From: Hydractinia symbiolongicarpus
Taxonomy: Eukaryota; Cnidaria; Hydrozoa; Anthoathecata; Hydractiniidae
Direction: 5' to 3'
Assembly: GCF_029227915.1 (NCBI RefSeq)
Contig: NC_079876.1
Coordinates: 25,200,328-25,264,327, forward strand
DNA length: 64,000 bases
The notes under the pieces were generated by a model. It did no database searches. It was given only the letters and a program-made list of their open reading frames with translations, and was not told the origin of the DNA. Numbering within the stretch: the first letter of the stretch is position 1; each line of letters opens with the position of its first letter. This document shows, piece by piece, positions 3,501 through 64,000 of the stretch. Both the position numbers and the translations under genes were made by a program.

Positions 3501-3704
3501 TGCATTCTCTTTATTTTGAATATACACATAAATTCTTAGATACATAATCTGTATTTGTTTTGCTGTCAAAAAGATACAACTTCGAACATTTAGGCATTCA
3601 AGTATTTAACCTATTGAAACTCATTCAAACAGTGAAACACTATTGGGAAGACGAAACAAATAGTTTACTTCGTAAGATTTGCCCAACACAAAATTTGTTA
3701 CACA
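558..3704. other. Spacer between channel copies 1 and 2
   Basis: About 3.1 kb of AT-rich sequence with no convincing gene. It is repeated almost base for base at 5,310-8,516 and 10,102-14,412. Short open frames in it are present in every unit only because the DNA itself is duplicated; they show no domain, codon-level constraint or splice structure. The last 200 bp before the start codon are equally conserved and presumably hold the 5' leader and promoter, but I cannot identify a specific control site. Confidence 0.8.
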
Positions 3705-13100: not shown

Positions 13101-14412
13101 AACATGTGAATAACATTGCATTTGGTATAAAATTTCATTTCAGGCGCTGAACGACCTTTTTTAGATGACAGTTCGTTTTCTGATCAATGCTTGCGATTTT
13201 GTTGTTTTTACCTCTACCATTTTTAAAGTGACATTTAACTTCACATAATTATAAGGAATAACGAAATTATACAGGAAAATTTAAAAATTCAAAATTGGCT
13301 TCTATTAACTGCCGAAAATTGAAATTAGGGTCTACCTAACTTTTTTTTCTTCCCTCACTGAAAAACTGCAGAAAAAGAAGTATAAGAAAAAAAGTCAAGT
13401 AGGACGGGCTAGTAATCTCATGCCAAGATAGCCAAGCACGTGAAAAGTATGAGGTTTTTGATTGGTTGAGAGCAAAGTCTGGTGCTAAGGCGCGAAAGGT
13501 GCGAAAATTAAAAAGGCGACAGGTTAGGAAATTCATATTAATAGGGGGAAAATGCCGGCTAGGTGGAAAATGTTGATTTGCGAGACAAAGATCTTGATAA
13601 AAGAGGGCAAAAAAAACTACTATCCTATATATTAGTATTTTCAAGATGATGAAAAAACTATCAAAAAATAAATAGGCAATTGTAATAATGTTTGACCATT
13701 TTTCTTTACCATACAGCAATCTGTCAAAAAACAGTCACTGTTTTTGTATTGAAAGAGTTTTAAACTTTTAAATAATTGACAACTTGAGTATAATTTTGTT
13801 TCAAAAAGTTGTATCTTAGGAACAAAGATAAATAACAATTCTATTGAGTGTGTAAGCAGTTATTAAAATTTATTAGGAATGTCTCCAAATATTTGTTTTT
13901 CATACCAACATAATGAACATGTATAAACAAAGAGATACACCTGAACTTTATATCTATTGGTTGCTTAAATACGTAAAAAACAAAACAAAACAAAGTTAGA
14001 AGAATAAGATCAGGAGAAAATACTTAAAAATTCTTATACACAGAACTGTAGGTTTTTAATGAATTATTAAAATCTAATGGTTGCCTAAATCCATAAAAAA
14101 ACACAAAGTTAGAAGAATAACGTCATGACAAAATACCTGAAAACACTTACATATAGGATAGCAGTTTTTTTAATGAATTATTAAATGTGTACTTCCACAC
14201 TCTTTAAATGCATTCTCTTTATTTTGAATATACACATAAATTCTTAGATACATAATCTGTATTTGTTTTGCTGTCAAAAAGATACAACTTCGAACATTTA
14301 GGCATTCAAGTATTTAACCTATTGAAACTCATTCAAACAGTGAAACACTATTGGGAAGACGAAACAAATAGTTTACTTCGTAAGATTTGCCCAACACAAA
14401 ATTTGTTACACA
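10102..14412. other. Enlarged spacer between channel copies 3 and 4
   Basis: About 1.1 kb longer than the other spacers because it contains one complete spacer plus a rearranged extra unit (see 10,862-11,515). From about 11,516 onward it follows the ordinary order of the spacer up to copy 4. No intact gene. Confidence 0.85.
10862..11515 (+). repeat. Gene-less remnant unit in the array
   Basis: Sequence to about 10,868 matches the spacer up to about 1,330; it then jumps to the equivalent of 2,812, runs to the equivalent of about 3,448 (some 250 bp before the channel start codon), and at about 11,516 jumps to the equivalent of 5,632, downstream of the stop codon. Two deletion or unequal-exchange junctions thus removed about 1.5 kb of spacer and a whole channel gene. 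Homopolymer runs (A at 11,331-11,346, G near 10,895) lie close to the first junction and in the body. Confidence 0.85.
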
Positions 14413-16017
14413 ATGAAAGAAGAGAACAAGAAAATGGAAGGGAAAGAAAATAATAAAGTTGAATTATCATACACAACGGAAGATGATGAAGATGAAATAA
14501 ACTACCAACAACTGTTTGCAAATTTTGCGTCGAATACTACAGCACATGGATTTGGTCAAATAACACTGACACAAAATATACCAATAAAGGTGTTTTGGAT
14601 TTTAACCTTGCTCGCATGTCATATAGGGTTATACTTCCAAATAACACCGCTAGTGGAACAGTATTCAAGAAAACCAACAAGCACAAAGATCTATCTTCAG
14701 GATGAAACATCCACTTATTTCCCTGTTATTGTCCTCTGTAATGAAAATGCTATAAAATTGGAAAAACTGGGGAGTCTAGAGGCATTGCTAAATAATAAAA
14801 CAGTAAATAGCAAGTCAGCCAACTCTACTCAAATCGTTGTGCAAAATCGTACACAATATTCCTACAGAATATACGATGATTATGGAAATTTCACAGAACA
14901 TTATTACTATGTAAATGAATCCCTAACAGTAGAGGATGAATTTTTTACACAAACTGAATTTAAGAAGAAGTACAAATCATCCATTGATGCACTTGTACTT
15001 CTTGATAAAGACGAGTTGTTTGAATATGGTACAAGTTTGGACGAAATGGTTGTATTTTGTCGGTGGAAATTTAAAGAGTGTTTATCAAATGAGGCTGGAG
15101 CATTTTGGCACAAGTTCTGGCATTGGAAATATGGCACTTGCCATGTGTTTAACTCTGGTCTGTCACAAAATGGTACAGAAGAAGATATCTTAACTGTCAG
15201 CAGCTCGGGTCCTGATAATGCATTGAGTTTAACTCTTTTTATCAATCAATCCCAGTATAATCCCAATGTCACTGATGCCGCTGGCATTCGATTTTATATA
15301 GGAGATCAAGGAAAACTGTACTCCCCTTATGCTCAAGGACACAGCTTGTCACCAGGATCCTCGTATTTTGTAGGGTTAAAAAAGAGAAACATAATACGTG
15401 TGGACCCTTTCAAAAATGAAAGTTGCAAAAAGCACCATAAGACTAATCTACAAAATCCAGTCACACAAAACGTATTAACAAAATACAGCAAAGAACTTTG
15501 CAAATATTTGTGTTTAGCGGAAACACAACTTTATTATTGTGGTTGTATTGAATACTATTTGCCTAAAACTGTATCGGAAAACAAAACATGCACGTCCGAA
15601 AGGGAGCGATTGTGCACAACCGAACCTCACATAAATTTTGCGACTGCCAATGCTGAGTGCATAACTAAGTGCACTCCTCCGTGTAGCGAAATTTCTTATA
15701 GCACACAAATTTCCATGCAAAAATACCTAAATCTTAAATACGAAGAAAAGGACAGCAATAAACTATTTTCTGATCAAAAAGGAGACATTGATTATTTAAA
15801 AGTTACTTTTTACTATGAAACTATGGAAACTGAAGTTTGGGAAGATGAAGAAGTCTATGGTATTGTGAATCTTCTTGCAGACATTGGTGGTCAATTGGGA
15901 TTATTTTCAGGTTATTCAGTTTTCACCATGATTGAATTTCTTTTCTTCTTTTTTTATATCGGAGCCCATACAGTTTATTTCCTCATCCCGCGAAGACGAA
16001 TGGCTTATCAAGGCTAA
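14413..16017 (+). CDS. DEG/ENaC channel, copy 4 (B type), intact
   Basis: Single-exon, 534-codon channel subunit, nearly identical to copy 2: His-Gly motif near residue 45, TM1 about 60-80, FPVIVLCN, glycosylated extracellular loop with paired cysteines, TM2 with GYS filter at residues 500-502, basic C-terminus. It differs from copy 2 at a handful of residues (for example EKLGS instead of KKLGS, and TVYF instead of TLYF). Between about 15,864 and 15,973 it carries the A-type bases inside an otherwise B-type gene, which looks like gene conversion. It is the last unit before the array ends at 16,676. Confidence 0.96.
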   Translation: MKEENKKMEGKENNKVELSYTTEDDEDEINYQQLFANFASNTTAHGFGQITLTQNIPIKVFWILTLLACHIGLYFQITPLVEQYSRKPTSTKIYLQDETSTYFPVIVLCNENAIKLEKLGSLEALLNNKTVNSKSANSTQIVVQNRTQYSYRIYDDYGNFTEHYYYVNESLTVEDEFFTQTEFKKKYKSSIDALVLLDKDELFEYGTSLDEMVVFCRWKFKECLSNEAGAFWHKFWHWKYGTCHVFNSGLSQNGTEEDILTVSSSGPDNALSLTLFINQSQYNPNVTDAAGIRFYIGDQGKLYSPYAQGHSLSPGSSYFVGLKKRNIIRVDPFKNESCKKHHKTNLQNPVTQNVLTKYSKELCKYLCLAETQLYYCGCIEYYLPKTVSENKTCTSERERLCTTEPHINFATANAECITKCTPPCSEISYSTQISMQKYLNLKYEEKDSNKLFSDQKGDIDYLKVTFYYETMETEVWEDEEVYGIVNLLADIGGQLGLFSGYSVFTMIEFLFFFFYIGAHTVYFLIPRRRMAYQG

Positions 16018-22800: not shown

Positions 22801-25800
22801 TGAAATATTTTGGGTGCCTAGATGTTAGCAGTGCTACTGTATAGGTATATTTTAATAATAACTGAAATACTTCTGAAAATATCTTCTTTTTAAATTTAAG
22901 AAAGTATACCTGATCTGATGATGATTTTTTCGTAGAACAATAAGTTGTTTTTGATGACTTGCACAAAGATCAGGTAGAACAGAAGGATCACCAATGTGCT
23001 CTGCTCTCATCTGGTTTTGCAAAAACCCCTATGAAGGAGGGCACTGGTTTATTCATTTTTCAAGCAACAAAACATTATTTGTTCGTCAACTGGTGTATTA
23101 AGAAAATCGAAAATTGGGGGTCAAGGCAATTCACAGCATTTCGATCAATGAAAACGGATATAAATTTTTCTTTCTGGGCTATTACCCAGTATACGTTTTA
23201 GTTAGTATAAGTTAACTTTTTAGACATCCTCCAACTCTGTTTTAATAAAGGATATTTTTTTTTAGAATTTCAGAAAATTTAAGTAGCTGATCAGTTAGAG
23301 TGTATATACCACCAAAACTTTTTGAAATATTCTCTCAACTGTAGGGGATACCTGTACATGTCATTTTTAAGTAAACAACCAATGATTGATAACTAGTTGT
23401 GCTTAAAATGCTATTATAATGTGAATATAAACTGCGTTAATATATTTGTGAGCTTCATTTCTCAAGATATATAACGTCAACAGTCTTATGGTCACTGCCA
23501 TGACTGTGTTGATTATGGAACTTTCTTTTCGGTAAAATACTATCTTTTGTGACGTAAGTCCACGAGATGCAAACATACGCATTTTGAATGAGCGAAGCGA
23601 GAGAATGCTCCTGTGATTGTCTAAAAGTAAGTTTATTTACCATATTTTAAAATAAATGTCTTCCTCGGAATAAAATAATATTTTATGGTTATAAATAAAG
23701 TTGTGAGATTTCGACACAAGTTCTCACTTAAAAAAAATAAGTATTACGTGTACCCAACTTTATTATGAAATTTTTCTTGTGTTATTTTTGTATCAACACA
23801 TCTTGAAAGACAACAGGTGCTTTAAACTTGCTAGACTTGAAAACAAGACGTTAAGTGATTATGCACAATAAATTATACTGGAGGTGATTTTGAAAGAAAA
23901 CAAAAACAGTCTCAAAGCTTTTTTTTTTTTGTTTACCTACTTTAGTATGTTGTTAAATTGTTGAAAATAATTTTTTTTACGATTTTGTTGTTCTACTGGA
24001 ATTTAACTTGTCATCGTTCAAACCTAGCAATAAATTATTATCTCTGTTGGACCAAGAAGTGAGTGCATCCTGACAAGTCCTGGTTAAGCAATATATGTCG
24101 TCTGATGCCACAAACCAACAAAATATGTACGAACCAAGTTGGCTTTTGTTCAATTATAGCAATGACCGTTAATGTAGTAATGGCTTTTTGGGTATGAAAT
24201 TTGGACATAATAAAATGCAAAAACGTTTTATGCAATGTTGTTTTCCAAGAGCAGCTCACAATATTTGGATTTGATTTTTAAATTTCCAAAATTCCTGCAT
24301 ATGATACAATTTTCTTGCACCAAATCAGTGTAGTTTAAAAATGGGTAGATCTGCCTAATGTTCTCTTAAACCTAGATCCCCAGGACCATGATATATGAAA
24401 GTGTTAAAACAACACAGGTGCTTTTGTTTAGGTTTTAATTCCCTGTATTTTCTGGTGGTATGCTGAAGATTTTGCTGTAGCATCAGTTGTTGTCAAAGAA
24501 TAATGGCCAGACAAGGAAAAGTCCTAACAAGAATGGCTTGTTTCAAACTTTAAAATGTACAATATAAAATACAGTTACCTGGGCCATGTCTACTTGATCC
24601 TGAATAAGTTGTTTCATGATAGTGACTCGCCCTTCTAAACTTGCTAATCTCTCTGTTAGGCCTTTAATTTCTTTCATGTTAACATTATTAACAGAGTCTA
24701 AATTAGATTAAAACGTATGTGAGTGAAAATATTGTGAACAAGAAATAAATTATAAATGAAGCATGGTTAACACTGTTAAATACTACATTTTGTAGTTATT
24801 CAATGATATAAATATATTTTGTGACAAACCTAGGTGCTTCTTAATTGTTCAGGCCTTTTTATTCAAAATTATAGAGCTATAACTTTCTTTACTAAGCCTA
24901 AATAACTCACATAACACTACAAATAAAGACAATTTCATTTTTATAAAAATCAGATTACAAATATTCGTAGTCTATCTTATTGTGGATTCAAAGGCATTTT
25001 CCATAACTTATGCTTGTCATTGCAGAGGGATTTCCATTGCTTCACGAAGACTGCATACCAACGTCAATAAAAAGAAACAACTCTTAAACATGTTCTTGCA
25101 TTAACTTCAATTATTTTTCTTAATTAACAAGTAATAAAGGATTGTTTGTACAGTTTTAAGAAACTTAGTACAGGGCTATTTAAAACTTTAAAAAGAATTG
25201 TGAACCAGAAAAGAACTAATAATAATTTTTTAACAACATCTTCATAAAAGAAGAAAATAATTTTCGTAATTGATGAATTCCAATTCTTTAACTTTCTATA
25301 AATAGTACTTTAAAATATAAAAATTCCATTAACCTTATTCATGCTGGGAGTGGGGGAAGCTTTAAATTTTGTGACTTTTCCTAACTTTCATTTAGCTTTA
25401 TTTGCCCAAAAATGTTTTTTCGGAATTATGCAGTAATATTCTGAAAAAATTTTTTGACTAAAAAATGTTTTAACATGTTTTTAAAAACTTAATGTTACTT
25501 CTTAGTTTATATTGTTATAATATTTTGTTTTTCTATTATTATTGTTACTAAATCCCTCACAATTATATACCATTTAAAATCGTTAACATAATTCAAAGTT
25601 AGTGTTGTATTTTTCTATATGACCCTGTATTTGATGACTTCATCAACAAAAATGCTGACCTCACCAAATTGTTTATTGTAAAACATTTGTGGTAAGTCAG
25701 GTCCAACGGACAACAATTGTAGAAATTACTTATCTGCATTTACTAACAATGTGCTACCACCATACTGCAACTTATCTATATTTACTAAAAATATGCTACC

Positions 25801-28800
25801 ACCATGCTGCAACTTATCTGTATTTAATAACAATGTGCTACCACCATGCTGCAACTTATCTGTATTTAATAACAATGTGCTACCACCATGCTGCAACTTA
25901 TCTATATTTACTAAAAATATGCTACCACCATGCTGCAACTTATCTGCATTTACTAACAATGTGCTACAACCATCCTGCAACTTATCTATATTTACTAAAA
26001 ATATGCTACCACCATACTGCAACTTATCTATATTTACTAAAAATATGCTACCACCATGCTGCAACTTATCTGTATTTAATAACAATGTACTACCACCATG
26101 CTGCAACTTATCTGTATTTAATAACAATGTGCTACCACCATACTGCAACTTATCTGTATTTACTAACAATGTACTACCACCATACTGCAACTTATCTGCA
26201 TTTAATAACAATGTACTACCACCATACTGCAACTTATCTGCATTTAATAACAATGTTCTGCCATCATACTGCAACTTATCTGCATTCACTAACAATGTAC
26301 TACCATCATACTGCCACTCATTTGTATTTACTAACAATGTACTACCACCATACTGCAACTTATCTGCATTTAATAACAATGTGCTACCATCATACTGCAA
26401 CTTAGCTGCATTCACTAACAATGTACTACCATCATACTGCCACTTATTTGTATTTACTAACAATGTTCTACCACCATACTGCAACTTATCTGTATTTAAT
26501 AACAACGTGCTACCACCATGCTGAAACTTATCTGTATTTAATAACAATGTACTACCATCATACTGCCACTTATTTGTATTTACTAACAATGTTCTACAAC
26601 CATTCTGCAATTCATCTGTATTTACTAACAATGTCCCATCTGTATTTAATATGTGACAGTAAAAACAACCATACCTAAAATTTTTTGGGCTTCTAAAAAC
26701 ACAGATTCCACAGCATTTGTGTTGGACTGAAAGAAAAAATATCCCACTTGAATAAGTTATTTTCACTGAATTTCTAGATTTTATAAAACTAGCTGTTAGT
26801 CCATGGAAAACCCATTGGTGTTAAACTGACATGAAACCTTACAGGAAATCAATCACTACTTGCAGGTACCATATTTGGCTCACAGACAGACAAATAGCAT
26901 TATTATTAAAGACTAGTCATTAGGCTGTTGAAAAATCCATAGAGTTGCGTGTCAGCAAATTATCTACTCTGCAGGGGACCTGGAATGAAAAAGCGGCTAC
27001 CCATTTTGAACACACAAAATACGGCTATTATCAAATACATATCTGTATTTATGGGAAGCAGTAAAGGGACAATATATATGCACTGAGGGCTGTAACATTA
27101 TGTAGCTTGCTTGCAATAGCAGCATAATGAAGTGTTCAGTATTCTTCTTTCTCCAGGGTTTACCATGGTATCACTATAAAAAAAACTACTGTAGAATGTC
27201 TTTATGCATAGCATAAAAAACTATTTGAGCATCTACCTGTTTCATGAAATCTTCACATTGCTGCAGAAGATTTTGAATTGTTGACTGTTGATCCTACAAA
27301 ATTATGATGTTATTATAAACAGATGTTGTGTTCTAAAGACTTTTTTTAAATTTAGATGAAAAATATAATTTAACAACTAGTCATTATCACGATATAAAAC
27401 TGTCAATAAACTTGTATAAAGCCTGAAAACTACCATTAATTAACTTTGTGGTAGCAAAAGTATGACCATGTATTTGGTGTAAACATAAAATCAACCCGTT
27501 GTAGACAAGAAACAAAATAAAGTATGTAAAATATATATTTTAAGAAAATTCTTGGTGTACAGGAAAGTGTCTGCTTTAGAGGTTCCGAGTATTGTGCTCA
27601 AATTAAACAAATTATTATGGCTGCACATTATGCTAATTTGTTATACTATCTTGATGGGTTGAAAAAAGCCATATTAGATCCATGGATTTAAAAAAGGAAC
27701 ATCTTTCTTATCATACCAACTTGCATTATCACATGTAAAATAATTACAAAAACTGTTAATTTTTGATTTTCAAGTTTAAAATTAAAATACTTCTTGACGG
27801 TTCCAAACAAATCTAATATTAATTTGTTTTGTGTTTTGTCCACATTTTGCACTGTAACTACCAAGCTAGTAAAATAGAAAAAATCACAGGAGATTATAAA
27901 AAAATTCCTGCTTTTCCAAGTTGGTTGTAAACCAAGGGTGGATCTATACTTTACTTGCCATTAATATAGAGCTTTTTAACTCTTTTTTTAAGAACAAATC
28001 GCTTAATGCTTTATTATCAGCTCTCTTGTTTGACTAAATCCATCCCATAATGTACATGCACTGCTCTATATTTTACAAACCAAAAACACTAACATACATG
28101 ATTAGAAATCCATTCAAGCAAAGAAGGAGTTTCAGTTGCTCCTTTACACAAGCACGGCAACAATGGTAACTGCTGCAAAAGTGAAAACACATGTTGAAAT
28201 CTGCAAATAAAAAATAGGAAGATTTGTGTACATATTATGACAGCAAACAGTTTGTTAAAATACCAACGTTAAAAAGTAGTTGATGGGCGATATTATTTCA
28301 TATTTTAAAATCTATAGTAAAGACCCACTCTAATACAAACAACAATGATGGTAAAAACACATCAACAATAATACTTACGACTGTAGCATCTTTTTACACT
28401 GCACTTGAGCTATCAGAAAGTTTCGAAAAGATCCTTTGACAACATCAACATGAGTTTTAAATGCACTGAAAATTAAAAAAACAGAAGGAAGGAATATCCA
28501 ATTTGTAATCTATGCAAAATAGCTATACCAAATGACAACTATATTTACAGATTTTACAGATTTTTCTGGTGAAGTTAACTTTTATCCAAACAAATCTATT
28601 GTAATAATCATTGTCTGTGACATTTGATGATTCGCAAAATGACAAATTTTGACTTACTTATACAATTAAAAAAGAATATAAATCGCAGAATTTTCCATTT
28701 TCAGTTAATGCTGGGAAATTTCTGTCAATGCTAAAACTTAGTATGAAATCAATTTTTAGAAATTTGGTAAACGTAACAAATAGGTCTTCTTTCAAACAGA

Positions 28801-31306: not shown

Positions 31307-34300
31307 TTAGTAAGAGGAAACAAAGTACTTTTTCAGATCACTTCTAAGATTAAAATAATCAAGGGAGACAAATTTTCTAGTCATTAAAGACTGCAATTTA
31401 TTCCAGGAATTAATGGCATTAAATCTAATTGAGTTTTTACCAAAAGAAATAGTATTAAAGGTAGGGAGATTGATCAAACCAATTTTCTCTGCCCGAGTGC
31501 CTTGAGCATGGGTGAAGTCAACCGCAAATGTATTAAGGATAGAAGCAGGCAATTTTTCATGAAATAGTTTATGTAAAAATAGAATATTGTGACATTTGAC
31601 AATATCAGAGAATTTGAGGAGCTCAAGATTACCATACAGGTGACTGGATGATGCTCTTCGAGATTCAAAAGACATGAGTCTAATAGCAAAATTTTGCAAA
31701 ACAGTAATACGATTAACATCAAGACTGTTTGGCTGACCCCAAATTTGATTACAATATTGCAAGTGTGAATGAAAAATGGCATAGTAAACTAGAATAAGAA
31801 CATTTAAAGGCACAAAGTGACGAAGTTTAGCTAAAGCTCCATTGGCCCTCTTGAGCTTGGCAACAGTATCATTGATCTGAGACTTCCAGCTTAAATCAGA
31901 ATCTAATAGAACACCAAGATATTTAATACAATTACTAGGTATAAGCCTTTTACCATTGATAAAAAGCCTAAAATCGTAATTAAGAGGTTTCCGTGTATGT
32001 TTAAAAACAATGTACTCAGTCTTACTAGCATTAAGAGAAATTTTATTGGCATTGAGCCAATGGCAAAGAAGCTTGAGGTCAAAATTCATTTGTTTGGCCA
32101 GTTGTTTCAAAGATTTACTGAAGTTTAAGAGATTGGTGTCATCAGCAAAGTGATGCACCAAAGAAAAATTAATTGAACAATGCAGGTCGTTAATATAAAT
32201 TAAAAATAAAAGAGGTCCTAAAACAGAGCCCTGAGGGACACCATGCCTGATAAGATTACTAGTTGATATATTTCCATTGATGGATACAAACTGTTGACGT
32301 CCTGTTAAGTAAGACTTAAATAGTGAGAGTGGGATACCACGAATTCCATAGTGAAAAAGCTTTTTAAGCAAAATTTCATGATCAACCGTATCAAAAGCCT
32401 TTTGAAGATCAATGAACACTCCACATGCATAATTTCCTTTATCAAGAGCATCCATAATTTTTTGAGAGATGTTCAGAAGTGTTTGAGAAGTCGAGTAATT
32501 TTTCCTAAAGCCAAATTGATGCTTGTAGAGGGCGTTGTTTGCTTCGAGAAAACCATACACTCGTTTGTATATGATTTTTTCATATATTTTATCAATATTT
32601 GAGAGTAAGGATATAGGTCGGTAATTTGTTAATTCTAATTTGGACCCTTTTTTATAAATAGGGATGGTCTTGGCAGTTTTTAGGTTTGTAGGAAAAATAC
32701 CAGTTGTGAAAGACAAATTAATAAGTTTTGAAAGTGGTATAGATAATTCAGATTTAACAAGAGTTAAAATATGGGCAGGAATACTGAATGGCCCAGAAGA
32801 TTTACCAGGGTCAAGGGAAGAAATGCAATGCAGAACTTCTAAATCATCAGTTGGTGAAAGAAACATCGAATTAGAAGTAGAATTTTTTAGAAAAGAGGAG
32901 AAATGTTTTCGAGTGAACGGGATATTCATTCTGATGTTATCTGCAATTGAAGCAAAGTAATCATTAAAAGAATTAGCAATTGTCACTGGATCAGTTACAA
33001 CAGAGTTATTAATGTTCATACAGGTGGGAGAAGCAGAAACAGAAGAACGAACAGAAATAATATTTTTAACCCCTTTCCAAATATTGCCAATATTTTTTTG
33101 GTTATTGCTAAAATATTTATTGAGGAAATTACTCTTACTCATTCTACATAGAGATACAATTTTGTTGCGGTACTTTTTAAAACTCTCTAGCAAGGAAGAC
33201 TTTAAAAGTGGATCTTTCTCTCTTAAAAAGCATTTATGCAGATGGTCTCTTTTGATTATTGAGGTAAGGATACCATTAGTAATCCAAGGATTGGATTTTT
33301 TTTTTCTTTTTTTGTTGCATGTTTTTTTTAGAGGAGCATGATTGACCAATAGACTGTTGATACAATTGTAAAAATTGTTAAACGATAAGTTGGGATCATC
33401 TACATTCAATTGTAGGATATCATCCCAATTTTTATTGTGAAGTTCGGTGAGAAAGTCATTGTGATGAAATTTCTTCCAATCATGAACAAATATATCATCA
33501 GAGGTGTGCAAAGGATTGATTGCAGACAAGTTTTTTAAGACTAAGAACTGAGGGAAATGGTCAGATATTGAACTTATAATATTACCAGACACAGTGTCCC
33601 ACTTGGCTGAACTAAAATAAATATTATCAATAATCGTGCTAGAAACTTCAGTAACTCTTGTGGGAAGAATTATATGCGGGAGTAAGTTAAATTGCGAAGT
33701 AATATCGATGTAATCGGACACTTCTTTGACTGTTTCAGACTTTAGAAGGTCAATATTAAAGTCTCCAAGGAGGAAGATAGACTTGTTATCTGAAGACGCT
33801 TTCTCAAGAAGAGGCAATAAAAAATGATTGTTGAACTCATCAACAGACATCGAGGGATGTCTGTAGATGCATCCAACAATCATGTTTCTATCTTTGGCCA
33901 GTATAATTTCAATGAATTTAGATTCAAGCTCCTTGCTTTTATATGCAAGAGTATCCAGGTCGGGACGTTCAATAAATTGCAAGTGATTAGGGATGTACAA
34001 AAGAGCACCACCCTTTTCACCTTCAGTAGGTGTGTGCGTGAAGGAATAACCCGATAGATCGCAGTTAATAGGTGGGATTTTAGTCTGGAATTTGGTCTCA
34101 GTGATACCAATAACACTGAAGTCATGCCCAAGTTGACCTAACAGAATCTTTAGTTCATCAATATGTTTAGACAGAGAGGCGATATTCATATGAAAAAGGG
34201 AGAATTTATCAGAATTAACTTGAAGGGCAGAGAATTCAATTGGATCGTAATATTTGCAGTTGACACCACCCATGGTTTCAGGATGGGGGACCTCGTTGAT

Positions 34301-34576
34301 TTCAATAGAGTTGAGCTGGGAGAGAAACCTTTTCATTTCCATAGAGGAAAGACTCTTGTCATAAACTAAGGGGGGAGTTGTTGAGCCAAAGGGGAGAATT
34401 TTGTTGATACATTTACAACAGAACCAAAGTTCATCAGAGTTTTGGAGAGATATATAATCATCAGCATTGAGACCATTGCATTTAATATGAATCCAGAATT
34501 TACAAATATCACACTGAATAGCCTTATGATTTGAATTAACAGACTTTCCACAGACACCACACGGAAAATTTATCAT
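31307..34576 (-). CDS. LINE ORF2: PHD finger, endonuclease, reverse transcriptase
   Basis: 1,089-codon intact protein. Residues about 6-56 form a PHD-type zinc finger (CGVCGK, CDICKFWIHIKC, WFCCKC). An apurinic-type endonuclease/exonuclease/phosphatase domain follows (HMNIASL near 130, ITETKF, LLGDFNID, and the SDHFP histidine motif). The reverse transcriptase occupies roughly 600-850 with PISLLSNIDKIYEK, FIDLQKAFDTVDH, GVPQGSVLGPLLF and the catalytic HHFADD. A C-terminal thumb region with a FxSHLQYCNQIWG-like motif ends the protein. It nicks target DNA and copies its own RNA there (target-primed reverse transcription). The N-terminal PHD finger could tether the protein to modified histones; that is inference. 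Confidence 0.95.
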   Translation of the reverse strand: MINFPCGVCGKSVNSNHKAIQCDICKFWIHIKCNGLNADDYISLQNSDELWFCCKCINKILPFGSTTPPLVYDKSLSSMEMKRFLSQLNSIEINEVPHPETMGGVNCKYYDPIEFSALQVNSDKFSLFHMNIASLSKHIDELKILLGQLGHDFSVIGITETKFQTKIPPINCDLSGYSFTHTPTEGEKGGALLYIPNHLQFIERPDLDTLAYKSKELESKFIEIILAKDRNMIVGCIYRHPSMSVDEFNNHFLLPLLEKASSDNKSIFLLGDFNIDLLKSETVKEVSDYIDITSQFNLLPHIILPTRVTEVSSTIIDNIYFSSAKWDTVSGNIISSISDHFPQFLVLKNLSAINPLHTSDDIFVHDWKKFHHNDFLTELHNKNWDDILQLNVDDPNLSFNNFYNCINSLLVNHAPLKKTCNKKRKKKSNPWITNGILTSIIKRDHLHKCFLREKDPLLKSSLLESFKKYRNKIVSLCRMSKSNFLNKYFSNNQKNIGNIWKGVKNIISVRSSVSASPTCMNINNSVVTDPVTIANSFNDYFASIADNIRMNIPFTRKHFSSFLKNSTSNSMFLSPTDDLEVLHCISSLDPGKSSGPFSIPAHILTLVKSELSIPLSKLINLSFTTGIFPTNLKTAKTIPIYKKGSKLELTNYRPISLLSNIDKIYEKIIYKRVYGFLEANNALYKHQFGFRKNYSTSQTLLNISQKIMDALDKGNYACGVFIDLQKAFDTVDHEILLKKLFHYGIRGIPLSLFKSYLTGRQQFVSINGNISTSNLIRHGVPQGSVLGPLLFLIYINDLHCSINFSLVHHFADDTNLLNFSKSLKQLAKQMNFDLKLLCHWLNANKISLNASKTEYIVFKHTRKPLNYDFRLFINGKRLIPSNCIKYLGVLLDSDLSWKSQINDTVAKLKRANGALAKLRHFVPLNVLILVYYAIFHSHLQYCNQIWGQPNSLDVNRITVLQNFAIRLMSFESRRASSSHLYGNLELLKFSDIVKCHNILFLHKLFHEKLPASILNTFAVDFTHAQGTRAEKIGLINLPTFNTISFGKNSIRFNAINSWNKLQSLMTRKFVSLDYFNLRSDLKKYFVSSY

Positions 34577-34841
34577 TTTTAAGTGAACACACAGAACATA
34601 AAAATATCACACAAAAATTATCAACAAGCCTATAGAAACAAGATAATCACGTATGAGAGCAGACGAAAACAAGCAGGAAATGACACAACACACAAAATGA
34701 CAATGGGATGTGTCAAAAGATGTGTTTAGTGTTTCAAAAGCTAGACAAGATGATAAACTACAGGGGAGTGAAAATTGATATTTATGACCGATTCAGCAAG
34801 CAAGCGCGCAAAAATAAATAAATAAATAAATTATTAAATCG

Positions 34842-35733: not shown

Positions 35734-36900
35734 TATATCTTTATTTGAAATTAACTATTTATTTATTTAAGTTTATTATTCTAATCACTCCCCGTTGTAG
35801 ATAGAGAAGTTTTACATCCGCTTATAGCTTATGAACACGTCCGTTCGCTACGATGTCTTGCTTGAACAAAAACATTTTAGTCAGAACATCTTAAACTCAG
35901 GGACCTAGAAATAGTGTGAGTTTTTTTATCTGAGCAACCTTTGTTGGAGATCTCTGCACTGAGATCTTCAATGCCAGATGAAGCTCTCCAGGTGATACGT
36001 TATACCATTGAGCCATCCATTCCAGTAGATGATAAGAAAAAAACCATGGATTTGGATGAATCGTCTACGCACACATTACACAGGAACAACAGGATCTACC
36101 CTAATGACTGATCGGTTCAAATTCTGGCATTCGTCCCAAAATCAAGATGAGACAGTCTAGGATTGGGAGGTCCGAATACGACAAGCCGGAAGCCTGTGTG
36201 AATATGGAGAAATTACAGACATTATGTGTCGTGATAAGTTTGTCTTTGGACTTTGTGAGGACACAGCACGAACTGAACTGTTAAAAACACATCTGAGAAC
36301 AGATGGCACACAGAAAACAATGTCAGATGTTGTCGCAGAGGCCAAGTCAATGGAATCTGCTCGAGTGACAAACAAACTCATCAGTGATGCATCAAAAGGG
36401 ACAGAAGAGAATGTTCACTGGACAAAAGCAACAATACCACCACAACAAAGGAAGAAACACAGAGACATGAAATTGAGACGTGAGCCAAATACTTGCCACT
36501 GGTGTGGAGACAATAAAGGACCACATCCTTGGGCAACTTGCCCAGCTAATGGACGTAAATGCACAAGGTGTGGTGGATTTGACCACTTTGCAGGAGTATG
36601 TCTAGAACAACAAAATGTCAGCCACCTTGGCAACAAGGGATACAACAGACCCAACTACAACAGAAGAAATAACCAACGTCCTCCACAACCAAACAGCAAT
36701 CCGCAGGGTATGCAAAAGTCGACCAACCACCTTCATGCAACATCAACATATTATCAACCAGATAGCAGAACAGAATCACCTGAGCAGCAACAACCAACAT
36801 ACTACACTGATGAACAACCACTGTATTACAGCACAGCGTACGCAACAGATCAACGGAATGGACAATCCCAATCAAATCAGGAAAAATTTATTCAAAGCTT

Positions 36901-39900
36901 TTGTGTTCATCAACAGGGAGAAACTTTGTAAACCTACAGTTCCAAATCGACTCCGCCGCTACATCCAACACCATATCGCACCAGGTCGTCCAGAAATACT
37001 TTCCTGATATCGAGCTTCAGAAATCGCGTTGTGTATTACTTCCTTATGGGAACAAAAGTGAGCCAATCAGACCCATCGGGAAAATCACCCTTTTGTGCGA
37101 AAAGTTCAAAAAGTATCATAGTCTAGTGTTCCAAGTCCTTGACTCGAAGGACATGATCGGAAAGCCAGCTCTCCTTTCCGGCAAAGACTGTGTAAACATA
37201 AACATCATGACCATCAACACAGGGGATATCTACTCTCTGCAACAGCAAGGCAACCTGAATCAGCCAACAACCACTAGCCAACCAAAAACACATGTTAACA
37301 AAACAAAGCCATTAGATACAACCCATCCGCTGACCAAGGAGTCATTAATTGAATGCTATAAAGATAGCTTTAACGGTGTTGGCTGTCTCCAAACACCAGT
37401 ATCATTCCGGGTAAAAAATGATGTTACACCAGTTCAAATGCCAATTCACCGAGTACCACTGAGCAAACGTGGGAAAGAAAAAGCAGCTATAGACAGATAT
37501 GTCAAAGAAGGAATACTGGAAAAAGTGACACAACCAACTCCATGGTGCTCAAACATACTTTGCAGAGAACAACCAAACAAATTTCGTGTATGCATAGACC
37601 CCAGCCAAACAATAAACAAAGCAATAGAACGACCTGTATACCAAATGCCAACACTGAATGAACATCTACACAAACTGAACAATGCAAAATGTTTCACATT
37701 AATTGATGTAAAGGATGGGTATTTTCACGTGCCGTTAGATGAAAAATCATCAGATATGACAACAATGCACACTACCTATGGACGTTATCGATGGAAAAGA
37801 CTTCCATTTGGCATCAACAGTGCTCCAGAGGAATTTCAAATGAGACTCATGACAGCGTTAGAAGGACTAGAAGGTATCGCACCCATAGCTGATGACATCC
37901 TAGTATATGGTTGTGGGGAAACAGCAGAAAGGGATCATGACAAAAATCTCATTGCACTAATGGAAAGAGCTAGAACCAAGAACATCAGATTCAACCCGGC
38001 AAAACTCAAATTCAAGCAGAAAGAACAGAAATTTGTAGGACACATTCTTACACAAAATGGCATCAAAGCTGATCCGGAGAAAACTGATGCCATCCTACAG
38101 ATGCCAAAACCACACGACAAAAAGAGCCTGCAACGCTTCATTGGAATGGTCAACTACTTATCACCTTACTGCCAGAACTTGAGCACTGTCATCCGGCCAT
38201 TGACTGAACTAACAAAAACAGACATGGCGTTCACATGGTCTTCAACACAACAAACTGCATTTTCAGATGCTAAATCACTTATAGCATCTACACCTGTCCT
38301 ACAATACTTTGATCCAGCTAAGAAGGTGATACTCCAGGTTGACGCAAGTGACAATGGTCTTGGAGGAACACTTCTACAAAACAACAATCAAGAACAGTTA
38401 CAACCAGTCGCATTCACATCTTGTACTCTCACTGAAACTGAGAGAAGATACTCTCAAATTGAGAAAGAGTGTTTAGCTATATGTAATGCATTCTCCAAGT
38501 TTGACCACTGGCTGTACGGACACAAAAACATTGAAGTACATAGCGACCACAAACCTCTGGAAATCATCATGAAGAAGCCACTCAACCGAGCACCGGCACG
38601 ACTCCAAAGAATGCTATCTAGACTACAGAGATACCAATTTATGGTAACGTACAAAAAAGGAACCACACTCTACATAGCAGATACCCTATCCAGAGCACCA
38701 CTCACCAAACCTTCTACAAACACAATAAATGCCTTTGAAGTATTCCGCGTTGAAACAGAGTCAGAGTATCCACAACACCACCATCAGCTCAAAAAAGACA
38801 CGGAAATGAACATCCTATCAGCTACGAAAAATGACCCAACCTTTCAACGGCTCTACACCCTGATACAAAGAGGATGGCCAGATGAACCACAACAACTTGA
38901 TCAGGATCTCAAACCATACTGGAACTTTAGAGACGAACTGTCCATCAACAATGGTTTTATATATAAAGGACACTGTACCATGATACCAAACGGAATGAGA
39001 AATGAAATGCTTCAGAAAATACATGCCAATCACATGGGTGCAGCTTCCAACACGAGAATGGCAAAAGAAGTACTTTTCTGGCCAAATATGGCAAGAGGTA
39101 TTACTAACATGTGTCATTGTCGATTTAAATTAGTTATTTAAATACTATTGTATCTATCGACGTTAAATAAAGAGAAAATCAAAAAAAATCAAAAAAAAAA
39201 AATCATGACTGCTCTGATTGTGCAAAATACCAAAGATCAGCATCTAAAGAACCGATGCGATCAATTCCTGTTCCGTCACTCCCTTGGCAAATTGTTAGCC
39301 AAGATCTGTTTGAATACGAGAATAAGGACTATCTGGTCACAGTATGCCACTTCTCTGACTGGATTGAAGTTGATCACTTACCAAACACCCTTGCTTCTAC
39401 TGTTGTAAGGCACACCACAGCACACTTTTCGCGTTATGGGATCCCTGAAATATGCCATACAGACAATGGACCACAGTTCATCAGCAACGAGTTCAAGAAT
39501 TTCGCCAAACAATATGGCTTTCACCATACTCGCTCTGCTCCATATTACCCAAAAGGGAATGGGCGTGCTGAAGCTGCAGTCAAAGTTGCAAAAAACATGC
39601 TCAAAAAGTCTCAAGACTTCCAAATAGCGCTTCTAAACTACAGAAATACTCCGCAACAGGGACACTTGAGTTCCCCTGCACAAAGAATGATGAACCGAAG
39701 AACCCGAACTATGCTACCAACCTCAAAGTCTGCACTTTTACCATCACCCATAGACGTAGCCAATACAACACAACAGATAATTGACAAACGAAGAACAGCC
39801 AAGGAAATATACGACCCTCATTCAGGACCAGTTCACGACAAACCAGACGTTGGCACATACGCATATGCTAAACCACCTCCACAAAAACGGGGACAACCAT

Positions 39901-40265
39901 GGACGTATGGACGAATAATCAGAAAAAATGACATGTCGTATACCTTGCAAACACCACAGAATACCATTATCACAAGAAACCGGGTTCACATCAAACCAGC
40001 GGCAGCACCATCCGGGCCACTGAGCATACATAAAACTGTCATCGTACAACCTCAACATACCACAGTCAAAACACGGTTGGATCAAATAACACCTGCACAC
40101 AATCAAGCACCTGTAACCCATGTAGCACGACCTCTTCCATCTGAACGACCACGTAGCAGTCCACAAGCAAAGCAAGCCTCAATCGAAGATTCGTCCATGA
40201 CACCAATAAGGCCACAGAGAACAACTAAATTACCAACTCGCTTGAAGGACTATGTCATGTCGTAA
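36901..40265 (+). pseudogene. pol: pol of the LTR element (PR-RT-RH-IN), broken in integrase
   Basis: Polyprotein in the -1 frame relative to gag. Protease: FQIDSAATSNTI (aspartate motif near residue 17, DSA instead of DTG or DSG). Reverse transcriptase: FTLIDVKDGYFHV, LPFGINSAPEEFQ and catalytic IADDILVYG. RNase H: LQVDASDNGLGG. Integrase: HHCC finger starting at IHANHMG, catalytic VTVCHFSDW, HTDNGPQF and YPKGNGRAEA. The frame is open from 36,901 to 39,117, then an 85-bp insert plus its 4-bp duplication splits the finger between its two cysteines and shifts the frame; the rest of integrase is open from 39,207 to 40,265. Apart from that insert no stop or shift is seen. Confidence 0.93.
39118..39202 (+). 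mobile_element. 85-bp A-tailed insertion in integrase
   Basis: Extra sequence between the codons of the MCH and DCSDC parts of the integrase zinc finger, flanked by TCAT on both sides (39,114-39,117 and 39,203-39,206). It ends in an A-rich, TCAAAAAAAA-type tail and contains AATAAA. It looks like a heavily 5'-truncated LINE or SINE copy. Confidence 0.75.
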
Positions 40266-59234: not shown

Positions 59235-59240
59235 TTTATT
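59235..59240 (-). terminator. Poly-A signal of the 59,296 gene
   Basis: AATAAA on the minus strand 56 bp beyond the TAA stop at 59,296. Confidence 0.5.
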
Positions 59241-59295: not shown

Positions 59296-62200
59296 TTAGT
59301 CAAATAGTTCAAATCCCATGTCGTCGTCACTTGATTCTGTTTCATCGCCCCTCGCTTCAACCTTTCCTTCATTAACCAGATCATTCTCACTACAACAAAA
59401 ATACAAAAAAGTTATTAAAAAAACTCTTTAGTTTATTTCATGTAGTGCTACGATGAAACGTACTATACTAGTCGCGAGCATGTGGATAAATCCACGGTTT
59501 CGGCTGTCCTCTATTTACCGCATTTTACGTGTCTCGCTACTGCGCACAAAATTACAACTACTGACTAAATATTAAGTTAATTTCAAAATCAAGAAAAAAA
59601 AACTTTTTCATAGTTTACACAAAAAAGAAACTCTATTTGAAAAACACTCGTGGTTAATGTTTGTAGAACAATAAATCTAAATATTTCTTTGGAAATAAAT
59701 GGTAACTACTTTAAGGAAAAAATCGCGAAAAAAACTTTAACGATTTTCGCCTAAATCGTGAAAAGTCGAGTTAACAATTCTAAAAATACTTACTTTAAGA
59801 GCAGAAATTTTCACGAATTCTACTTCTGGAAGTAATTTTACAGAAAAGCTATCGCGAATTTTTTAAAATCTTCATTTTTGGGAACAAAAATTTTCGCAGA
59901 TGATAATAAATTTCAATGAAAAAAAAATATTGAAATAAGAAAACAATCCATTATTATATAGAAAAAATTCACCAAATTATTGTCTCACTCTTCTCTTCGT
60001 TTTTTATCTTGAAATTTGAATTTTCTGATACGAAGATATTCAAACACTTCCGTTTTTCGATTTTTACCTGATTTCCCCACATTGAGTCGGGCTTTGGAGC
60101 CATTTTTAGAGTTTTTTCATTGTGATTCTATTATTTCTAACCTTGTCCTCGGAGTTTTTCCGAGTTTCTTCGGATTTTAAAACTTAAAAAAAACTTTCGC
60201 GATTTTTAGAAAAAGTTGATTTTCGCGTATTTCAGGTTAAATTTCTTACCAGGCAGAAATTTTCGTGAAAAGGGGCAAAAATCGCGAAAATCGCGAAAAT
60301 TTCTGCCTTCGAAAATCTCTGCTCTTAAAGTATTGACTAAAGTTAATTCTTGCTATTACAATATACGTAAAAAAGTATTTAAAATATTTTAAAAGAACCT
60401 ACTCGAAAGGTCCTTTCGTCCATTCGTCTTCGCTCTCTTCTGAAACTTCATTCCCTCCGTCTTTCACCTTATCACTGTTGCTAGAAAAAATACAACAAAG
60501 TTAGTAAAAACACGCTTCACTGAATCATGTCTAGGTTTTAAATATATTCTATTATACATTAATGGGTTTAAAGTCTCTAAGAAGAGGGGAGGGTGTTTTT
60601 AGACTTCTGTTGAATGCAATGTTTGTTTTGTATAGGGCTCTTATCGAAGGCTATTATTCATTTTAATGCTACTATTGCCATGCGTAAACGGTGCAGTGCA
60701 TAACTTATTGCAATAACAGAGAAAATCTATTTTTAGGGAGTAAATGGGTAACTACTTTCAAGAAAATGAAGTCGCGAAAGTTTGACATTGGAGAAAGTTT
60801 AAAAAAATTGTTCAACTAGAAAGTTGATTCTGGCTGATTTCCTTTTATACTCTGTAATTTCTTTGAGGTGATGAAAATATTTCCTTTTATGTCACTTTCG
60901 TCTTTTTCGTTTAGGGTTTCCTGTAAGAATTGTCAACAAACTCTTTGAATCATTTCAAATCGTGATTTTTTATCGGTGCGGAAATTTTATAGTAACTTTA
61001 CGCACTCTTTCAAGATATAAGAATCAAGAAAAGTTAATCCTCCCAAAAAGTCATTACCAGAATTTAAAAATACTCTTTCTCAAAGTTGTTTTTCTTGGTT
61101 TGGAATTATTTATAATTTCGAAAATTTCTTTGATTAAAGTGGTGCAGGGAATGAGTTTAGTGCTAGCGAACTACCAAATTTGAATACTTGAATGAAAGTT
61201 GTTCTTGTTTCGTGATCCTTTTCCATTTACTGGTCCTTCATTGCATGAACCCAGCGGCTGGAAATATGTCAAGTTAAAGGTTGCCTATTCATATGTTAGC
61301 ACCAAAAATCACTCAGCTAATTTTTTACTTTAATAGCGGCATGTTATTGTGCGCAAAAAATAGCTTTAATTCGTGTTAACAAAGCAGCAATAGTCTCATA
61401 ATGTTTACATGTGGAATTTGATAGTAGTGTAGCTAAAATTTTGAGAATTTAACATCTTCATACATATGTAGACTGGGTAGTGACTAAAGATTCTTGAATT
61501 TAATGTATGTGTGAGCTCAAGAATAAATGAAATTAAAAAGCTTTTAAAAACGCTTTAAATCTTCAACGTTTATTTCGCTTGATATAAATTTGCCATTTTT
61601 ATCGACTAAGGTCCTTAAAAAATGTTAAGTTTCATAAAACGCAAGAACTTAGGAATAAGAAATTAAAAACAAAATTACGTACATTTTACCCACTTTCGCT
61701 GTTTTTTCGGCTGTGAGACCTTCCCAAGTTTCCAAATCATCTTCGTCATCTCTGTAATAAATGAGAGCAAATAATCAGAATTTTTGTTTTCACTAAGCTG
61801 CTTTCGACATGCTTTGATACGACATCAACGCTTAAAGCGGGAAAAAACTTCTAAATTAATAGCAAATAACAAATTTCTTTATGTTTTTAATTAGTATTAA
61901 TTAGTATACATACTCCGTTGGACAAAATTTTCGTCACTCCAGCAAAAACTTGGTTATTTTTCTCGATCAAGTATGACAAGCAGCTTTGGTCACAGACCGA
62001 AAAAATCTGTCTGTAGTATCGATATCAAGACGATATTTAATGCCATTTAAAAACAAAATATGAGTTTTAGGTCGAATCCCCAAAATTTTGCAGCAACGAC
62101 ACATATTTATTAAGGTGTAAAGACACCTTGGAAGGTTGCCTAATTTTCTTCATTTTTTCTATTAAATGCCCTAATAAACGCCCTGTCTTCAATCAATGCC

Positions 62201-64000
62201 CATCCCTAAATATTAAACGAGAGTATACTGTAGAACCTACACGTGAGTATAATGTATGTTAGACTCCTCTTTACCAACGATCGTCTCTGAAATTACTACA
62301 AAGTAATATGACGCATTTTCCTTCACGGTCGTAACTGTCCAACTTGATTGCTTTATTTTTACTGCCAAAGTTTCTGTCCGATCATTCTCCTCTGTCATCA
62401 AAACGGTGTATTCACAAAACTCATTTGTCCATGTTAACTTGCAGGAAGTTTCATTTATATATACACACTTTAAATCTTGGACTGGAACTGGTGGTTCATA
62501 TCTAAACATTGTAACGGAATGATCAAATGTCCAAGATGTTTTATAGAGGAGCTATAACTAGTCTTAGAATGGATATATCCTGCATCGATCATAAATAGAG
62601 CTTTAATTTGAGTTTATACATTGTCCTTAAAAGCAATTAATCCTAAATTAAATTTGGAAAATGCATTACCTCAATCTTGCAGGTATGACAATATTGGTAT
62701 TGCAGTACCTGTAATACCAATAACCCCTTTCCCTTACGCTAGATTGATGGTAAGCGTGCACTTTATTGATATACGAGTCAACATTAAAAACGTTGATAGT
62801 TTCAACGAGCAAAATAGAGTTTAAACTTTTACCTTCTGAGCATGGATAAGTTAAGCTTCATATTTTTGTTTCCATCCAAATTCTTCTGTAACTTAATCTT
62901 TTCCAAATATTCTTCATACAACGTACCATCATCTGAAGTATTAATCTTCAGTACTGTTCTGATACATGTATTTCTTGATTGGCGCGCTTCATGTTCACTT
63001 AAACTTTTGCTATAATCAGCAGCCCATTCCTTTCCATTCCATCCTTCAATTTGTTCTATGTACGGTGTTGATGTGTATTCATCAAGATATGTTTCCACCT
63101 TTATTGAATCAATCTTCTGTTCCATCTGTAAACGATGCAATGTGTTCTGCACTGTTCCCTCTACATTGTCCTCAACATCTTCAGTTGATTCATCAAGACA
63201 TATAAAAACAAGCCTTGATGTAGCTCTGCTGCTGTTTTCAACAACAACATGACGCAGCTCGTCGTTTCCGTCCACACAAACAATGACTTCCTCTGCTTCT
63301 AATCCCCTACAACCTTGATGGTTTGTAATCAGCGTGTAGTGGGACGGCAGAACACTGATTATCTTATTGTCATTGTCGACAATCTTCCAGTTAGTGTGCA
63401 AAGCGCAAGAAAGATAATTAATACTCAACACTCTCAGTGCCTTTTCGATAATGCTTTGATGGTATTCAGACTCTACTAAGATAAGTCGAACACAATCTTC
63501 TTTAAAACAGTAAGCTTTAAGTGCGAGTGATAAAACAGCAACACCCTCGTGGTATTCCTTAGAACTAAACTTGATGTTGATAGATAATGGCAACTGTCCA
63601 TCAATATTATGACCAATGATCTTGAAATTTCGATACACATACGATGTTTCAGTTTTAATATTACCGCTAAAATGTGACGTATCGATTTTAGAAGCAATAT
63701 AGTCGATTTCCATTGTTCTTTCGTACAGTATTTCTTTTTCCGTTGGCTTAGTTTCCGGTTCCTGTGTTTCCGTTACAGTTGAAGGTGGTTGAGGAATTGA
63801 CGGTCGCCCCACTGATTTTTTTTTCATTGCTCCTGGAACATTTTTTTCCGTTGTTTCTTTTGAATTAATTGCTGGTAATTCTTGGTGTTTAATTATTGAA
63901 ATTTTCTGACAGGCTTCTTCTTGGAAAACCTTTAAGATCTCGCATATGTTTCGCGTTATTCGCATACACTTTTTTAGCTCAAAAACTTTCATTCCAGTAA
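59296..64000 (-). CDS. Helicase-like, FN3 and ribosomal-stalk-tail protein, 5'-partial
   Basis: Exons (minus order): 64000-62833 (runs off the window), 62501-62241, 61751-61683, 60480-60403, 59389-59296 with TAA. All four introns are phase 2 and frames join cleanly. The first exon has a Pro-rich linker (VGRPSIPQPPSTVTETQEPE), a mixed alpha/beta region, and TNHQGCRGLEAEEVIV followed by ENSSRATSRLVFI, which resemble motifs V and VI of UvrD-type (superfamily 1) helicases. The next exon is a fibronectin-III domain (VPVQDLKCV, SCKLTW, YYFVVISETIVG). The last three encode about 80 mostly acidic residues ending SSDDDMGFELFD, almost the invariant C-terminus of ribosomal P1/P2/P0. No Walker A is in the part seen; it may lie upstream. 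Function unknown; a translation- or defence-related role is only a guess. Confidence 0.75.
59467..59571 (-). mobile_element. Helitron-like short element, degraded copy
   Basis: Contains CTAGTCGCGAGC, the hairpin GTGG...CCAC and the GGCTGTCCTCTATTTACC part of the family; host T follows CTAG on the minus strand. Lies in the last intron of the 59,296 gene. Confidence 0.5.
59790..60333. mobile_element. MITE rich in TCGCGA motifs
   Basis: Ends are inverted copies: TTTAAGAGCAGAAATTTTC at the left and, reversed, TTTAAGAGCAGAGATTTTCG at the right. The interior is full of TCGCGAAAA and TTTTCGCGA on both strands, so it can fold extensively. Lies in the last intron of the 59,296 gene. Confidence 0.6.

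What the first reader, a model, noticed from the sequence alone, without database searches (positions are those of the whole stretch)
59296..59389. A non-ribosomal protein that ends in the ribosomal P-stalk tail
Seen: the terminal exon, joined in frame to exons carrying an FN3 domain and a helicase-like region, ends SSDDDMGFELFD-stop. Established: P0, P1 and P2 of eukaryotic ribosomes end in (E/D)(S)DDDMGFGLFD, the mobile peptide that docks translational GTPases, contributes to GCN2 activation and is the handle used by ribosome-inactivating proteins. Inference: a multi-domain protein carrying this peptide could recruit elongation factors or act as a decoy or sensor for ribosome-targeting toxins. 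Only one residue (E for G) differs in the final ten.
Basis: partly seen in the sequence, partly recalled or inferred. Interest (0 to 1): 0.82.

Follow-up and report, generated by a model that had tools for sequence, protein, structure and literature searches.

The report
Hydroid protein with ribosomal stalk tail
A large non-ribosomal protein of a colonial hydroid ends in almost the same short tail that ribosomes use to grip their elongation factors, and although its job is unproven, a simple binding test could show what it does.

Summary
The last 555 residues of an existing 1359-aa gene model for this locus equal the exon chain read here and end ETESSDDDMGFELFD. An exact codon pattern for that end hits three places in the genome: this gene, P0 and P2. 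P1 has it too, split by an intron. All 26 PDB sequences matching the terminal exon at E <= 10 are P0, P1 or P2 C-termini, only the best below 0.001.

The protein belongs to a large family (79 matches, some partial): P-loop/helicase-like core, FN3, variable C-terminus. Of 10 loci with a clear FN3 exon, 6 have ankyrin repeats downstream and only this one the stalk tail. The core is under purifying selection.

Best reading: a P-stalk-like motif that docks translational GTPases or other stalk ligands (inferred). The toxin-decoy idea is weakened: Gly-to-Ala at the one differing position abolished binding of one stalk-binding toxin (PMC3280276). The nearest paralogue lacks the tail; no capture from native P genes is visible.

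The parts
62833..63998 (-). C-terminal part of the 905-codon P-loop/helicase-like exon (continues beyond the window end)
   Evidence: Open frame. The full 905-codon frame is at L009:7159-9873. Its 3' part is in gene model P0003. 79 matches in the genome, own one included.
62241..62501 (-). FN3 exon, phase 2 in and out
   Evidence: Pfam fn3 E 3.2e-5, 24.5 bits, just under the cut-off. A related exon was found in 9 of 11 other family loci fetched.
61683..61751 (-). small acidic exon VDDEDDLETWEGLTAEKTAKVGKI, phase 2-2
   Evidence: Junctions; same peptide in P0003.
60403..60480 (-). small acidic exon NSDKVKDGGNEVSEESEDEWTKGPF; the alternative acceptor at 60474 drops two residues
   Evidence: P0003 uses the 60480 acceptor.
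59296..59389 (-). terminal exon with the P-stalk-like tail ESSDDDMGFELFD and stop
   Evidence: The 26 PDB hits at E <= 10 are P0/P1/P2 C-termini. One of three exact matches to the tail pattern in the genome.
59235..59240 (-). AATAAA polyadenylation-type signal 56 nt after the stop
   Evidence: AT-rich DNA, so weak evidence alone.

Best explanation
This is a host gene of Hydractinia symbiolongicarpus encoding a member of a large expanded family: a P-loop NTPase/helicase-like core followed by FN3 and a variable C-terminus. In this member the C-terminus is an acidic, probably disordered linker ending in a working copy of the ribosomal P-stalk C-terminal motif. The proposed mechanism is that the tail docks on proteins that normally read P-stalk tails, first of all translational GTPases such as eEF1A, eEF2 or eIF5B. 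That would bring the NTPase module to translation machinery, or hold those factors near it. Shown: the exon chain, the tail, its rarity in this genome, the family architecture, and purifying selection on the core. Inferred: disorder, docking, and any effect on translation.
For: Gene model P0003 ends in the tail. All 26 PDB sequences matching the terminal exon at E <= 10 are P0/P1/P2, each aligned to its last residue; the best is human P1, E 1.6e-4 over 25 aa, the others 0.016-0.81. The two other acidic exons of the gene give no P-protein hit. 0 of 20000 whole-exon shuffles reach the score to any of four P tails. The exact genome-wide pattern hits only this gene, P0 and P2, with reversed control 0. 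The acidic run, the Ser before DDD, and MGF.LFD at the very C-terminus are kept. P-stalk literature assigns MGFGLFD to partner binding and the charged part to regulation (PMC11624264, passages). dN/dS of the core against the nearest paralogue is 0.16 (379 codons) and 0.11 (86 FN3 codons).
Against: Glu replaces the usual Gly; the five P-protein alignments shown have Gly or Ser there. The nearest paralogue appears to end in acidic exons without the motif, so conservation is not shown; selection was measured on the core, not the tail. With the last 11 residues held fixed, upstream similarity is unusual only for human P1 (1 of 20000 shuffles), not human P2 (618), wheat P2 (575) or wheat P1 (2012), and Hydractinia P1 lacks that KVEA stretch. 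The Ribosomal_60s family search of the genome at E <= 10 did not pick up this exon. A tail-region search among proteins of 385-1225 aa in the large protein database found no candidate sharing three words. No binding data exist.
Confidence: 0.42

Rival explanations
1. The tail is an acidic, aromatic C-terminal motif that converged on the P-stalk sequence for another use (CK2 substrate, acidic-hydrophobic docking peptide) and does not read out P-stalk ligands.
For: The two preceding exons carry acidic-plus-aromatic stretches, DDEDDLETWEGL and ESEDEWTKGPF. The nearest paralogue appears to have a generic acidic end EEKEETEKSDTTSRQLK (read by eye). None of the three native P genes shows a phase-2 terminal exon like this one; DNA identity over the last 72 nt (stop included) is 41 to P0 and 42 to P2, against 63 between P0 and P2.
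Against: Ten of the last eleven residues match the P tail, at the exact C-terminus. The three acidic exons are not alike beyond composition, so the tail is not simply a duplicated acidic exon.
Confidence: 0.35
2. The tail is a bait: an immune-type NTPase receptor has exchanged the ankyrin C-terminus of many relatives for a piece of the ribosomal stalk, so that parasite factors which grab the stalk are caught (like integrated decoys of plant NLRs).
For: Large expanded family, 44 of 79 matches on one contig. 6 of 10 loci with a clear FN3 exon carry an ankyrin frame downstream while this one carries the stalk tail. The integrated-decoy idea is established in plants (PMC4246468, PMC4759852; listing and abstract starts only).
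Against: No evidence that the family is immune; no known N-terminal signalling domain was found. Gly to Ala at the differing position abolished SLT-1 A1 binding. The ankyrin frame does not fit the FN3 donor phase directly, so its membership in the same gene is inferred.
Confidence: 0.13
3. Gene-model artefact: the acidic exons belong to another transcript, or the terminal exon is rarely used.
For: Small exons in AT-rich DNA with introns of 489, 1208 and 1013 nt after FN3, a weak-looking FN3 donor (GT|GTAGGT), and an AATAAA also in the first of these introns. No reads could be inspected.
Against: An existing 1359-aa model with the identical chain. In 10 of 10 family loci with a clear FN3 exon a phase-2 GT follows its end at or before the first in-frame stop, so the family plausibly continues past FN3. 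The nearest paralogue also has readable phase-2 acidic exons.
Confidence: 0.07

Closest known systems
Ribosomal P-stalk proteins P0 (uL10), P1, P2: conserved C-terminal tail SEESD(D/E)DMGFGLFD
   Same: Acidic stretch, Ser before the DDD run, MGF.LF and Asp as the last residue, ending exactly at the stop.
   Different: No P-protein family match; 1359-aa NTPase-FN3 protein; Glu for Gly; different exon structure and intron phase.
Neuronal surface P antigen (NSPA), a non-ribosomal protein with a ribosomal-P-like epitope
   Same: A non-ribosomal protein reported to present a P-epitope (PMC12465742, passages read).
   Different: Known through cross-reacting autoantibodies; its sequence was not examined here and no P-stalk function is implied.
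Integrated-decoy NLRs of plants
   Same: An expanded NTP-binding family with a variable C-terminal module, one of which copies a piece of another host protein.
   Different: Different NTPase type, no leucine-rich repeats found, no immune role shown.
Own family in Hydractinia (uncharacterized proteins LOC130630588, LOC130630219)
   Same: Same core; LOC130630588 isoform X2 also has the FN3 exon.
   Different: No stalk tail in these two models; 6 of 10 inspected loci have ankyrin repeats downstream of FN3.

Membership tests
Ribosomal P1/P2/P0 proteins (Ribosomal_60s, PF00428) | P-protein family domain (P1/P2 helical domain, uL10 body) | tested here: not met
   No such Pfam match in P0003 at E <= 1. 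The PF00428 scan of the genome found five places, assigned here to P0, P1 and P2, none at this gene.
Ribosomal P1/P2/P0 proteins (Ribosomal_60s, PF00428) | C-terminal (S)DDDMGFGLFD tail | tested here: met
   SSDDDMGFELFD-stop, one substitution in the last eleven residues.
Ribosomal P1/P2/P0 proteins (Ribosomal_60s, PF00428) | Tail binds translational GTPases | not testable with these tools
   Needs a binding assay.
SF1/SF2 helicases | Curated helicase profile above cut-off | tested here: not met
   DEAD 15.5 bits against cut-off 26. A profile of 14 family members finds no helicase in the PDB; its one hit at E <= 10 is a low-complexity match.
SF1/SF2 helicases | Walker A and B motifs | tested here: inconclusive
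   GNFGSGKT and HLIIDEFDGE seen by eye in P0003; not tested biochemically.
Fibronectin type III domain | Pfam fn3 match above cut-off | tested here: inconclusive
   24.5 bits against cut-off 25, 20.9 bits in the full protein; related exon in 9 of 11 other family loci.
Integrated-decoy NLR-like receptors | Signalling domain plus an integrated copy of a pathogen target | tested here: inconclusive
   P-tail copy present; no known signalling domain found by Pfam or PDB sequence search.

The most novel reading that the evidence does not exclude
An animal has built an integrated-decoy receptor: one member of an expanded NTPase-FN3 family has exchanged the ankyrin C-terminus of many relatives for a mimic of the ribosomal P-stalk tail, making the protein a soluble sensor for whatever binds the stalk (translational GTPases under stress, or parasite factors that attack ribosomes).
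Probability: 0.13. Interest if true: 0.85.

Novelty: new variant of a known kind. Interest (0 to 1): 0.56.

Why it matters
In the papers seen, the P-stalk tail is a ribosomal handle that elongation factors, GCN2 and some toxins recognise. A non-ribosomal protein carrying it would show that the handle can be borrowed to redirect or monitor translation factors, and gives a compact peptide test of what the tail alone can do. It would also be an example of C-terminal module exchange in an animal gene family.

Tried and rejected
Rejected: separate P1/P2 gene or retrocopy. Similarity stops at the exon start, and no P-protein family match lies in the gene or at this place in the genome scan.

Rejected: recent capture of a terminal exon from the native P genes. 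P0 and P2 last exons start 120 and 150 nt before the DDD codons, in phase 0, and P1's tail is split by an intron after MGFG. The KVEA match to human P1 is absent from Hydractinia P1, so it is coincidence or very old; I do not build on it.

Rejected: tail as a duplicate of the two preceding acidic exons. 1500, 1019 and 161 of 2000 shuffles reach the observed pair scores.

Led nowhere: the protein search with the 553-aa composite (none; this gene's own 1359-aa model falls outside its length range); the tail-region search of proteins 385-1225 aa (no candidate; the same 1359-aa model is outside its range too); PDB profile search of the core; NCBIfam (nothing over a cut-off); the viral contig scan for the tail pattern (0 stretches); literature on the family (nothing on it in the listings). 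A genome search for near-variants of the tail (2 mismatches) did not complete, so relaxed variants in paralogues remain untested beyond the regular-expression scan of the loci then in hand.

Rows left out: 11 other family loci were fetched with downstream DNA. Two of them, L024 (only a weak 23-aa FN3 hit, E 0.085) and L027 (none), were not in the 10-locus counts of donors and ankyrin frames. The length of downstream DNA held differs between loci, and L025 has about 2.4 kb of masked letters. The nearest paralogue's core exon is split into two overlapping frames and its model P0005 stops at 722 aa. It may be decaying, so its lack of the tail does not tell gain from loss.

Full report
What was checked. 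The finding says that a terminal exon at 59389-59296 (minus strand) ends in SSDDDMGFELFD and is joined to FN3 and helicase-like exons. I read the DNA, rebuilt the chain and found that the four internal junctions can be placed at GT-AG sites in phase 2: 63998-62833, 62501-62241, 61751-61683, 60474-60403 (or from 60480, an acceptor 6 nt upstream) and 59389-59296. The gene starts beyond the window. The window lies in a genome of 480.9 Mb in 76 contigs. Two named protein matches from a contig of the same length point to Hydractinia symbiolongicarpus.

Support for the chain. The large protein collection holds a 1359-aa protein, P0003, for this locus. Its source is hidden because the window encodes it; it stands for 4 member sequences. 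It ends with exactly my 555-residue chain when the 60480 acceptor is used. I could not see the evidence behind that model. In 10 of 10 family loci where the FN3 exon was clear, a phase-2 GT follows its end at or before the first in-frame stop, and the nearest paralogue can be read on into short acidic phase-2 exons (by eye). So the FN3 exon is probably not the last one in this family.

Is the tail more than chance? A codon pattern for [DE]3-MGF-x-L-F-[DE]-stop matches exactly three places in 481 Mb, with none for the reversed control: this gene; C6:20892302, which is P0; and C13:6794757, which is P2. The P-protein family search adds P1 at C6:9938296 and 9938811, whose tail is interrupted by an intron after MGFG; a fitting LFD-stop exon lies about 470 nt further on. 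That family search, run at E <= 10, did not list the present exon. Against the PDB, the 31-aa exon matches 26 sequences at E <= 10. All are P0, P1 or P2 (a few under older L10 names), each aligned to its last residue. The best is human P1 (E 1.6e-4); the rest lie between 0.016 and 0.81. The two preceding acidic exons, as a control, match no P protein, and the first 20 residues of the terminal exon alone match nothing. Whole-exon shuffles reach the score to none of four P tails (0 of 20000 each). With the last 11 residues held fixed, upstream similarity is unusual only for human P1: 1 of 20000, against 618, 575 and 2012 for human P2, wheat P2 and wheat P1. A scan of viral contigs for the same pattern found nothing.

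Origin. I looked for the source of the exon. Hydractinia P0 and P2 have last exons that begin 120 and 150 nt before the DDD codons in phase 0, and P1's tail is split by an intron. None resembles a phase-2 cassette starting at ENDLVNEG. DNA identity over the last 72 nt, stop included, is 41 (P0) and 42 (P2) of 72, while P0 and P2 share 63. Hydractinia P1 lacks the KVEA of human P1. I therefore see no trace of recent exon capture; convergence under selection or an old capture both remain open.

The family. The 389-aa exon piece has 79 matches in the genome at E <= 1e-3, its own included; 44 of the 79 lie on contig C2 (counted by hand). Some are fragments of one gene, so the gene number is lower; the tool also warns that counts of large families are lower bounds. 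The nearest, at C2:22.78 Mb, is 64% identical over this exon, the next 35%, and the rest 25-45%. An FN3-like exon follows the core in 9 of 11 other loci fetched with downstream DNA; L024 gave only a weak piece and L027 none. Of the 10 loci with a clear FN3 exon (own included), 6 (L018, L019, L022, L025, L026, L028) hold a same-strand downstream frame of 156-183 codons that Pfam identifies as ankyrin repeats. The other four (own, L012, L015, L023) showed no such frame among those printed. By eye the ankyrin exon begins in a phase that does not fit the FN3 donor directly, so an intermediate exon must exist that I did not resolve. The stalk tail was found only in the DNA of this gene among the window and loci L001-L028. 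A CAP-domain frame (Pfam E 3.7e-10) lies about 1.3 kb beyond FN3 in the nearest paralogue; whether it belongs to that gene is unknown.

Function of the rest. Pfam gives only a sub-threshold DEAD match (15.5 bits, cut-off 26) and borderline fn3. A 14-member profile finds no solved relative beyond one low-complexity hit at E 5.1, and the N-terminal 303 residues match nothing. GNFGSGKT and HLIIDEFDGE are P-loop-like motifs by eye. dN/dS against the nearest paralogue is 0.16 over 379 codons and 0.11 over 86 FN3 codons, with synonymous sites near saturation (dS 1.3 and 1.5). The core is under purifying selection; this says nothing directly about the tail.

Mechanism. In P proteins MGFGLFD is described as the partner-binding part and the charged stretch with CK2 serines as the regulatory part (PMC11624264, passages read). 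The tails bind and activate translational GTPases, and are needed with uL10 domain II for full GCN2 activation. Human P1/P2 alone do not activate GCN2, although the same paper cites a yeast study in which P1 and P2 were enough (PMC6421407, passages read). These sequence elements, except the Gly, are present here at the true C-terminus. I therefore rate docking to translational GTPases or another reader of the tail as the most likely single explanation (0.42), with convergence on a similar acidic-aromatic peptide close behind (0.35). A toxin-decoy role is less likely as stated: an alanine scan found that replacing the Gly of FGLF removed measurable binding to Shiga-like toxin 1 A1 (PMC3280276, section 12 read, other passages). 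Glu itself was not tested there, and other ligands may differ.

Novelty. In four literature searches on the tail I saw in the listings no report of a non-ribosomal protein ending in the P-stalk tail. One was a full-text search for MGFGLFD: 44 papers, 40 listed, of which I opened passages or sections of PMC3280276, PMC11624264, PMC6421407 and PMC12465742. The nearest is NSPA, said to present a P-epitope at the neuronal surface (PMC12465742, passages). Many subscription papers are not held, so this is not proof of absence. I file it as a new variant of a known kind: a known linear motif in a new protein context.

Limits. No reads, no related species, no structure prediction and no mismatch-tolerant genome search were available. 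The conclusion about function rests on motif identity and position.

The chain, the polyadenylation signal, the exon distances and the donors were recomputed.

Noticed in passing
L018, L019, L022, L025, L026, L028 (downstream of FN3): Six inspected family loci have an ankyrin-repeat frame after FN3, so the family seems to vary its C-terminal module.
   Followed up: partly
L012/L014 (C2:22.78 Mb): The nearest paralogue has its core exon split in two overlapping frames, a long TA repeat beside its acidic exon, and a CAP-domain frame about 1.3 kb past FN3 on the same strand.
   Followed up: partly
window 3-557, 3636-5309, 8521-10101, 14344-16017: Three tandem, very similar frames of 526-557 codons and a partial fourth (184) that look like DEG/ENaC-type sodium channels (by eye).
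   Followed up: no
window 31307-34606 and 36161-40265: Frames that look like a non-LTR retrotransposon and an LTR-type polyprotein (by eye).
   Followed up: no
window 25659-26820: A repetitive array open in several frames, minisatellite-like (by eye).
   Followed up: no
L035 (C6:9938811): In Hydractinia P1 an intron splits the conserved tail after MGFG, unlike P0 and P2; a fitting LFD-stop exon lies at L035:2053-2068.
   Followed up: partly
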